Origin: Absidia repens
Lineage: Eukaryota; Mucoromycota; Mucoromycetes; Mucorales; Cunninghamellaceae
Assembly: GCA_002105175.1 (NCBI GenBank)
Contig: MCGE01000002.1
Location: forward strand, 2,447,102-2,511,101
Reading direction: 5' to 3'
Length of the DNA: 64,000 nucleotides
Position 1 is the first letter of the stretch; each line of letters starts with the position of its first letter. Shown one piece after another: positions 39,716-41,577 of this stretch. The notes beneath the pieces are model-generated. The model searched no databases, had not been told where the DNA came from, and saw nothing but the letters and a program-made list of their open reading frames with translations. A program made the translations under genes and the position numbers.

Positions 39716-41577
39716 ATGGCTTCTCGTCTTCAACAAGTTTCTGGTCACCTTGCCCCTTCCAACGGCTCTGCTAACAAGATTGGTCACAAGTCTCCTGAAG
39801 ATGTAGTGATTGTCTCTGCTTTACGTTCTGCCATTACCCGTGCTCGTAAGGGTGGTTTCAAGGATTCCCTTCCTGAAGGTAAGTGAATGGGCGCGTTTGA
39901 ATAAATCCTCTATGCTTATGATGTCGATATTCAATCGTACAATTTTTATTTATTTATTTTGTCATCAATAGAAATGCTCTCCGGTGTCTTCAAGGGTGTT
40001 ATTGAACAATCCAAGATCGACCCCGCTTTGGTGAACGACATCACTGTTGGTACTGTTTTGGCTCAAGGTGGTGGTGCTACCAACGCTCGTATGGCCGCTC
40101 TCCATGCCGGTTTCCCCGAATCTACTGCCATCAGCACTGTCAATCGTCAATGCTCTTCTGGTCTCCAAGCCGTTGTCCAAATCGCCACTGCCATCCAAAC
40201 TGGTTTGATTGAAATCGGTATTGGTGCTGGTTTCGAATCCATGACCAAGAACTATGGTGCTACTTCTTTGGCCCCTACTTCTGAAAAGATCTCTGATGAA
40301 TGCGCCTCCGCTGCTGATTGTCTCATTCCCATGGGGTAAGATTTTATCTTTTTGTTGTATTTTTTTTTTCTATTGGGAAGATATAATAACTCATAATGTT
40401 GCATCCACATCTTTTTGTCTTTAGTATCACCTCTGAAAACGTTGCCTCTGACTACAAGGTCTCTCGTGCCAAGCAAGATGAATTTGCTGCTTCATCTCAC
40501 ACCAAGGCTCTCGAAGCTCAAAAGAACGGCTGGTTCAACGAAGAAATCATCCCCGTCAAGGCTACTGTTGAAGACAAGGATGGTAACGAAACCACTGTCG
40601 TTATTGACAAGGATGATGGTATCCGCCCTGGTACAACCGCTGAAAAGCTTGCCAAGCTCCGTCCTGCTTTTGATGATGAAGGTACCACCACTGCTGGTAA
40701 CGCCTCTCAAGTCTCTGATGGTGCTGCTGCTGTTTTGTTGATGAAGCGCAAGGTAATTTGAAAAAGAAGAAGAGCAGGACCATTTTAATAGAGAGGTGTA
40801 TGTTGTCGTTAATGGTCATTAATCATATGCGCTTGTTTTGTTTTGACAGACTGCTGAAAAGCTTGGTTTGCCCGTTATTGGCAAGTACATTACCTCTGCC
40901 GTTGTTGGTGTACCTCCTCGTATTATGGGTAAGTGAAAAAGAGGTACAGGAGCGATTGTTTAATATTGTCTTGGCACTCACCACGCTTCTTTTTATTTAG
41001 GGTAAGCGAAGGAATAACTGTCGGTTTATGAACGATCGACCAGTACTAACATTTTACACTCGTGATTTCCTTTTCTTCTCTTTAGTGTTGGTCCTGCTTA
41101 CGCCATCCCTGCTGCTCTTGAAAAGGCTGGTATCTCTGTCAACGATGTCGATCTCTATGAAATTAACGAAGCCTTCGCTTCCCAAGCCGTCTTCTCTGTT
41201 GATAAGCTCTCTATTCCTTACGAAAAAGGTAAAATCATCTTGACGAAGGAAGTCTCTTGATCAAGTGTGTGACTGCATGGTTCATTTTATATCTGACTCC
41301 TTTTTTTATTTAGTGAACATTAACGGTGGTGCTATTGCTTTGGGTCATCCTTTGGGTGTCACTGGTGCTCGCCAAATCGCTACCTTGATGTCTGCTTTGA
41401 AGCGTACCAACAAGAAGGTCGGTGTTACCAGTATGTGTATTGGCTCCGGAATGGTAAGTTGATGGAAATAAAAGGCGATTATCGGATAGGAGAATGAGTC
41501 CTTCGATACAAATACTGACAATACCTTTGTCTTTCTTCGATTTATAGGGTATGGCCGCTGTGTTTGAACGGGAATAA
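39716..41577 (+). CDS. POT1: Peroxisomal 3-ketoacyl-CoA thiolase with a one-nucleotide exon
   Basis: Last step of fatty-acid beta-oxidation: 3-ketoacyl-CoA + CoA to shortened acyl-CoA + acetyl-CoA. The N-terminal RLQQVSGHL is a perfect PTS2 (R-L-x5-H-L), directing Pex7 import. Exons: 39716-39878, 39972-40335, 40425-40752, 40850-40928, 41001, 41086-41228, 41314-41453 and 41548-41577, summing to 1248 nt, 415 aa, close to yeast Pot1 (417). Catalytic sites: [11 protein letters not shown] (nucleophile Cys, about residue 120), [27 protein letters not shown] (His) and [15 protein letters not shown] (second Cys). Without the single G at 41001 the sum is 1247 and [14 protein letters not shown] cannot be read through. 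AATAAA lies at about 41675. Confidence 0.95.

What the first reader, a model, noticed from the sequence alone, without database searches (positions are those of the whole stretch)
40921..41095. A single-nucleotide exon in the peroxisomal thiolase gene
Seen: exon 4 ends ATG G at 40928 before gtaagt; the next usable exon starts T GTT GGT at 41086 after tttag. The conserved thiolase segment PPRIMGVGPAYA needs ATG GGT GTT, i.e. exactly one more G. Midway, ttttatttag (ending 41000) is followed by one G (41001) and then gtaagc, so two canonical introns of 72 and 84 nt flank a 1-nt exon. The second intron also carries a good branch-point-like gtactaac. With it the coding length is 1248 nt; without it 1247. 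One-nucleotide exons have been described in a plant gene (Arabidopsis APC11); I know of none in fungi. Alternatives: recursive splicing at AG|G|GT, a single 156-nt GT-TA intron, or a base error.
Basis: partly seen in the sequence, partly recalled or inferred. Interest (0 to 1): 0.88.

Follow-up and report, generated by a model that had tools for sequence, protein, structure and literature searches.

The report
One-letter exon in fungal thiolase gene
A common fat-burning enzyme gene of a soil mould seems to be spliced together with a coding piece just one DNA letter long, and the gene's two sister copies carry a piece of one or two letters at the same spot; such tiny exons are known from only a few plant and fungal genes.

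Summary
The gene is a peroxisomal-type 3-ketoacyl-CoA thiolase of, very probably, Absidia repens. Exon 4 ends ATGG (40928), exon 6 starts TGTTGG (41086), and the conserved MG[VI]GP motif needs one more G. G41001 lies between a top-scoring acceptor and the best donor of the region.

Two paralogues in the same genome decide it. The C1 copy has aag|G|gtaagc (1-nt exon). The C4 copy has ATG|gtaagt...atag|GG|gtaaag: a 2-nt exon with the upstream donor moved by one base, so ATG GGT GTT is kept. Their flanking introns align no better than the best shuffles. Two deposited A. repens proteins equal the C1 and C4 models letter for letter.

No single GT-AG intron tested gives the motif in any copy (0 of 18, 15, 21). 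One in-frame rival, inserting Asn, uses a poor donor and exists only in this copy. The three listed models of two other Absidia species all break here.

No reads were available, so splicing is inferred. The kind is known: plant APC11 and VPS55, Fusarium CYP621A (2026). This would be a further fungal family, outside the Dikarya, with an unusual 1-nt/2-nt swap between old duplicates.

The parts
39716..39878 (+). exon 1 (163 nt), start codon; N-terminus holds RLQQVSGHL (residues 4-12), a PTS2-like peroxisomal signal (consensus recalled)
39972..40335 (+). exon 2 (364 nt), nucleophile-Cys motif NRQCSSG (role recalled)
40425..40752 (+). exon 3 (328 nt)
40850..40928 (+). exon 4 (79 nt), ends ATT ATG G
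40929..41000 (+). intron 4 (72 nt), GTAAGT...TTTATTTAG; branch-like CTCAC at 40977-40981 (motif recalled)
41001..41001 (+). exon 5: single nucleotide G, second base of the Gly codon in IMGVGPAYA
   Evidence: frame; site scores; paralogues
41002..41085 (+). intron 5 (84 nt), GTAAGC...TCTCTTTAG; branch-like GTACTAAC at 41043-41050 (motif recalled)
41086..41228 (+). exon 6 (143 nt), starts TGTTGG
41314..41453 (+). exon 7 (140 nt), GHPLG and CIGSGM; the C1 and C4 copies have an extra intron here that makes an 11-nt exon
41548..41577 (+). exon 8 (30 nt with stop codon)

Best explanation
The gene encodes a peroxisomal-type 3-ketoacyl-CoA thiolase whose fifth exon is the single nucleotide G41001. Two ordinary short GT-AG introns (72 and 84 nt), each recognised across the intron, are removed one after the other, and the mRNA reads ATT ATG G-G-T GTT GGT (IMGVG). 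Shown: the sequence, the frame need, the strong sites, and the same design in two paralogues. Inferred: that the spliceosome uses these sites; that the steps are sequential, because the AG of intron 4 is also part of the AGG|GTAAGC donor of intron 5, so the two sites can hardly be bound at once; and that the exon is included in nearly all mRNA, because skipping it puts a stop at codon 360, 137 nt before the last junction. Either order of removal gives the same product. The lineage has kept the base by constraint on the motif; between paralogues one base has moved between exon 4 and the mini-exon (1-nt and 2-nt forms).
For: Frame: 1248 nt and 415 aa with the G; frameshift and stop without it. 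The three best solved relatives, the ones whose alignments were printed, align without a gap through the motif. Paralogue C1: ATGG|gtaagc..90 nt..tttttaag|G|gtaagc..85 nt..cctag|TGTTGG. Paralogue C4: ATG|gtaagt..109 nt..ctcatag|GG|gtaaag..90 nt..tatag|TGTTGG (the numbers are whole intron lengths). Deposited A. repens proteins P0001 and P0121 equal these models exactly. C12 and C1 differ at 71 of 214 fourfold sites but keep 94% of residues; their introns beside the mini-exon align no better than the best of 100 shuffles. 0 of 18, 0 of 15 and 0 of 21 in-frame single GT-AG introns give MGVGPA. Site scores. The three listed models of A. cylindrospora (both paralogue types) and A. glauca break at this junction: P0011 (AKE...VYER) matches a reading of this gene's second intron and P0135 ends in the out-of-frame exon 6. 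Weak: P0005, a 386-aa frame on a 1267-base contig (source 'lgn', species unknown), so probably from spliced RNA, reads IMGVGPAYA and is identical at 368 of 386 residues.
Against: No RNA reads were available. The deposited A. repens proteins show what annotators modelled, not how (transcripts or protein homology). The window copy's own protein was not seen as a separate row. Nine of nine listed 'unnamed protein product' models from Cunninghamella, Mucor and Rhizopus stolonifer are intact at this junction, so the arrangement may be absent, or solved by the gene finder, there.
Confidence: 0.93

Rival explanations
1. One single GT-AG intron 40933-41085 (donor TAA|GTGAAA) is removed; the protein has one extra residue, IMG-N-VGPAYA, 416 aa.
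For: It is the only one of the 18 in-frame single-intron models of this copy that keeps both VPPRIMG and [15 protein letters not shown].
Against: The donor scores -2.9 against 10.5 for GTAAGT four bases upstream; half of the window's GTs score as high. None of the 148 listed homologues has one extra residue here: 145 read MG[VI]GP, the other 3 are broken models. The corresponding donor is absent from the C1 list, and in C4 it is not in frame with the exon 6 acceptor.
Confidence: 0.03
2. One non-canonical single intron (GT-TA 40929-41084, or TA-AG one base over) is removed in one step.
For: By the sequence it gives the right protein in the window copy and in C1.
Against: It does not need the AG-G-GTAAGC signals that the copies keep inside. 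In C4 it would need both ends non-canonical (TA...TA), as read.
Confidence: 0.02
3. Base error or a decayed copy: the genome lacks a base at an exon edge, or the gene is a frameshifted pseudogene.
For: The window copy on its own needs one base.
Against: Two more copies on other contigs need the same missing base or bases. 94% protein identity with a third of fourfold sites different shows constraint.
Confidence: 0.01
4. The site is a pure recursive (ratchet) splice site and the G does not stay in the mRNA.
For: The AG and GT nearly touch, as at recursive sites (recalled).
Against: Without the G the mRNA is frameshifted. The introns are only 72-109 nt. C4 has two bases between the sites, again the number the frame needs.
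Confidence: 0.01

Closest known systems
Single-nucleotide exon of Fusarium CYP621A (Nelson and Syed 2026, PMC12940212; parts 1 and 2 of 3 of the text read)
   Same: Fungal nuclear gene, AG-G-GT, the base is the middle one of a Gly codon in a conserved motif, out-of-phase exons; nearly all deposited models wrong at the junction.
   Different: Fusarium P450 in 20 orthologues, with RNA reads; here a beta-oxidation enzyme in a Mucorales mould, in duplicated copies with 1-nt and 2-nt forms, without reads.
Single-nucleotide exon of Arabidopsis APC11 (Guo and Liu 2015, PMC4674806; passages read)
   Same: 1-nt constitutive exon between AG and GT, needed for frame; sequential removal proposed as one model.
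   Different: Plant, base A, proven by cDNA and mutants.
1-nt microexons of plant APC11 and VPS55 (PMC8831610; passages read)
   Same: Conserved over long evolution, missed by annotation; VPS55 donor GTRAGT.
   Different: Plants, RNA-seq and RT-PCR support; the VPS55 exon-free copy is traced to intron retention, not to a moved base.
Xlr2 microexon of Trichoderma virens (PMC11121469; start of abstract and passages read)
   Same: Fungal microexon.
   Different: Presented as a regulatory in/out switch; its exon size was not looked up. No regulation is shown here.

Membership tests
single-nucleotide (1-nt) spliceosomal exon | one nucleotide between a canonical AG and a canonical GT | tested here: met
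   41001 between AG 40999-41000 and GT 41002-41003
single-nucleotide (1-nt) spliceosomal exon | the base is required to keep the frame of a conserved protein | tested here: met
single-nucleotide (1-nt) spliceosomal exon | no single canonical intron gives the conserved protein | tested here: met
   0 of 18, 15 and 21 in-frame models give MGVGPA; one C12 model gives it with an extra Asn
single-nucleotide (1-nt) spliceosomal exon | conserved in relatives | tested here: inconclusive
   same in paralogue C1; 2-nt form in C4; other species known only through deposited proteins
single-nucleotide (1-nt) spliceosomal exon | transcript reads contain the base between both exons | not testable with these tools
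   no read archive on hand
recursive (zero-nucleotide) splice site | AG directly followed by GT, nothing retained | tested here: not met
   one base (C12, C1) or two (C4) lie between; the frame needs them. Definition recalled
peroxisomal 3-ketoacyl-CoA thiolase | sequence relation to solved peroxisomal thiolases | tested here: met
   best PDB match 2iik, named 3-ketoacyl-CoA thiolase, peroxisomal, E 6.7e-132; TIGR01930 over cut-off
peroxisomal 3-ketoacyl-CoA thiolase | catalytic Cys, His and Cys motifs | tested here: met
   NRQCSSG, GHPLG, CIGSGMG present; roles recalled
peroxisomal 3-ketoacyl-CoA thiolase | PTS2 import signal | tested here: met
   RLQQVSGHL at residues 4-12 by recalled consensus; no match in the first 60 residues of C4

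The most novel reading that the evidence does not exclude
The ultra-short exon is older than the duplication that made the two thiolase types of Mucorales, and has lasted as a 1- or 2-nt exon by moving single bases between exon 4 and the mini-exon; skipping it would give a frameshifted, decay-prone mRNA and could tune peroxisomal beta-oxidation.
Probability: 0.35. Interest if true: 0.75.

Novelty: new member of a known kind. Interest (0 to 1): 0.62.

Why it matters
It would add a further fungal gene family, a core metabolic enzyme outside the Dikarya, to the very short list of 1-nt exons. The three copies give a natural experiment: same place, 1, 1 and 2 nt, with diverged introns, so rules for ultra-short exons (order of removal, how U1 and 3'-site recognition share AGG|GTAAG) can be tested. 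It also explains why the listed models of two other Absidia species are broken here, and warns that gene finders miss such exons.

Tried and rejected
A first gene model had wrong edges at introns 3 and 6; corrected. A script with a wrong exon edge for C1 stopped with an error and was corrected.

Search for further 1-nt exons: the 17 TTTAGGGTAAG places (L009-L025) were read by eye without gene models. I saw the full arrangement only at L014, this gene. L009, L010, L012, L020 and L021 look like ordinary coding exon ends, L016 like an ordinary acceptor, and L018, L019, L022, L023 and L025 share one repeated sequence. The remaining five (L011, L013, L015, L017, L024) were not assigned.

No DNA of other Mucoromycota could be had: the genome search says this genome has no relatives there, and other fungi were seen only as proteins. 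The paper search for Absidia repens with RNA-seq (listing only, 6 papers) gave no evident transcript source. Other paper searches for prior reports: 14 of 14 listed; 20 of 51 listed; 2; 7; 2; 0.

Structure prediction, fold search and RNA models were not used: the question is one of splicing.

Full report
What is there. The window lies in contig C12 of a 47.4 Mb genome in 79 contigs. Two deposited proteins named Absidia repens sit on contigs of 3,895,514 and 1,266,665 bases, the lengths of contigs C1 and C4 of this genome, and equal the gene models I built there, so the organism is very probably A. repens. The gene at 39716-41577 encodes a 415-aa thiolase of the peroxisomal type: the best PDB match, 2iik, is named 3-ketoacyl-CoA thiolase, peroxisomal, and 2wu9 and 1pxt among the best six bear such names too. 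TIGR01930 is over its cut-off, and a PTS2-like RLQQVSGHL is at the N-terminus (consensus recalled).

The junction. ATT ATG G ends at 40928, TGTTGG starts at 41086, and the motif IMG[VI]GPA needs one more base. With G41001 the CDS is 1248 nt; without it 1247 nt, frameshifted, with a stop at codon 360, 137 nt before the last exon junction. Introns 4 and 5 are 72 and 84 nt; the other five introns are 85-97 nt, while a single joined intron would be 157 nt. Site matrices were built from 16 introns of the three paralogues, those beside the microexon left out. In 40850-41228 the best two donors are 41002 (11.0) and 40929 (10.5), and the best three acceptors are 40850 (exon 4, 11.8), 41001 (11.7) and 41086 (9.5). 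TTTAGGGTAAG occurs 17 times in both strands of the genome.

Alternatives in the same DNA. I listed the single GT-AG introns of at least 40 nt between exon 4 and exon 6 that leave a full-length frame: 18 in this copy, 15 in C1, 21 in C4 (acceptors were taken only up to about 120-130 nt into exon 6). None gives MGVGPA. One in this copy (40933-41085) gives IMGNVGPAYA. Its donor is poor (-2.9) and it has no in-frame counterpart in the other two copies. Two searches each scored about 8000 candidates and listed the best 120, 148 distinct proteins in all. Of these 148, 140 read MG[VI]GPA, 5 more read MGVGP with another next residue, and 3 are broken models; none has one extra residue there.

Paralogues. 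This is the strongest evidence. The C1 copy (94% aa identity; 71 of 214 fourfold sites differ) has ATGG|gtaagc, aag|G|gtaagc, tag|TGTTGG. The C4 copy (64% aa identity) has ATG|gtaagt, atag|GG|gtaaag, tatag|TGTTGG. So exon 4 and the mini-exon each differ by one base in opposite directions, and the codons ATG GGT GTT are the same. In the 6 comparisons of the introns beside the mini-exon none aligns better than the best of 100 single-base shuffles, though all 6 lie above the shuffled mean, so some old likeness may remain; of all 20 intron comparisons 1 passed its best shuffle. Shared signals in such diverged introns point to selection. P0001 equals the C1 model and P0121 the C4 model letter for letter. 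How the depositors made those models I could not see.

Other species, through proteins only. The A. cylindrospora orthologue P0011 (364 of 373 aligned residues identical to this gene) reads IM-AKEIWTVYER-VGPAYA. This gene's intron 5, read after ATGG from the AG inside gtaag, gives AKE-stop-LSVYER, so that model probably has a false exon cut from the homologous intron. The A. cylindrospora C4-type P0135 ends IVLVPLMLSLLPLNVLD, which is what C4's exon 6 reads in a wrong frame up to its stop. The A. glauca model P0066 ends IMGRCGSL. These are the only three of the 148 without MG[VI]GP, and all are from Absidia; the two A. repens rows are intact. P0005, a 386-aa frame on a 1267-base contig of unknown species, is probably from spliced RNA and reads IMGVGPAYA. 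Against a wide spread: 9 of 9 other listed rows named 'unnamed protein product' (Cunninghamella 5, Mucor 3, Rhizopus stolonifer 1) are intact; if one pipeline made them all, which I could not check, those genera may lack the mini-exon.

Age. A tree was built from 66 of the 148 listed proteins plus this one (quick method, SH-aLRT only; the chosen outgroup is not one side of any branch). The C4 type lies in a set of 21 rows (support 99), all of genera that I recall as Mucorales, joined by three Umbelopsis rows (97). The C1/C12 type lies in another set of 30 rows (91) that also spans many Mucorales genera. So the duplication is probably older than these genera. If the mini-exon was inherited by both types, it is as old; parallel origin or gene conversion inside Absidia is not excluded.

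How it probably works. Short fungal introns are thought to be recognised across the intron (general knowledge). The AG of intron 4 overlaps the three bases before the cut that U1 would read at the AGG|GTAAGC donor, so recognition of both at once is unlikely and removal is probably stepwise. Guo and Liu suggest such a combined model for APC11 (PMC4674806, passages). In plants the upstream intron of a microexon tends to be the detained one (PMC8831610, passages). Both orders give the same mRNA here.

Novelty. Searches for prior reports found plant APC11 and VPS55, Fusarium CYP621A (PMC12940212, called there the first for a fungal gene; parts 1 and 2 of 3 read) and mitochondrial cases seen as listings only. 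No listed title or abstract start concerns a thiolase or a Mucoromycota mini-exon of this kind; one search listed only 20 of 51 papers, and the library lacks most subscription papers. So I rate it a new member of a known kind, with the 1-nt/2-nt swap between paralogues as its own feature.

Noticed in passing
L007 and L008 (C1 and C4 paralogues), near the 3' end of the gene: Both copies also have an 11-nt microexon (GATCCGGAATG and GCTCTGGAATG) just before the last exon; the window copy lacks the intron upstream of it.
   Followed up: partly
window 41548-41556: The acceptor of the last exon is also followed one base later by a donor-like GTATGG (ATAG|G|GTATGG), the only other AG-N-GT at 1-nt spacing above the cut-offs in the window; here the bases are coding.
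   Followed up: no
P0011, P0135, P0066: Deposited thiolase models of Absidia cylindrospora (two) and A. glauca (one) are broken at this junction.
   Followed up: yes
L018, L019, L022, L023, L025: Five of the 17 TTTAGGGTAAG places share one repeated sequence (by eye).
   Followed up: no
genome G000: AGGGTAAG (1427 places) and TTTAGGGTAAG (17) are rarer than the same words read backwards (2448 and 48); that control does not match neighbouring-base content.
   Followed up: no
L008 (C4 paralogue): The C4 protein has no match to the PTS2 pattern in its first 60 residues, unlike C12 and C1.
   Followed up: no
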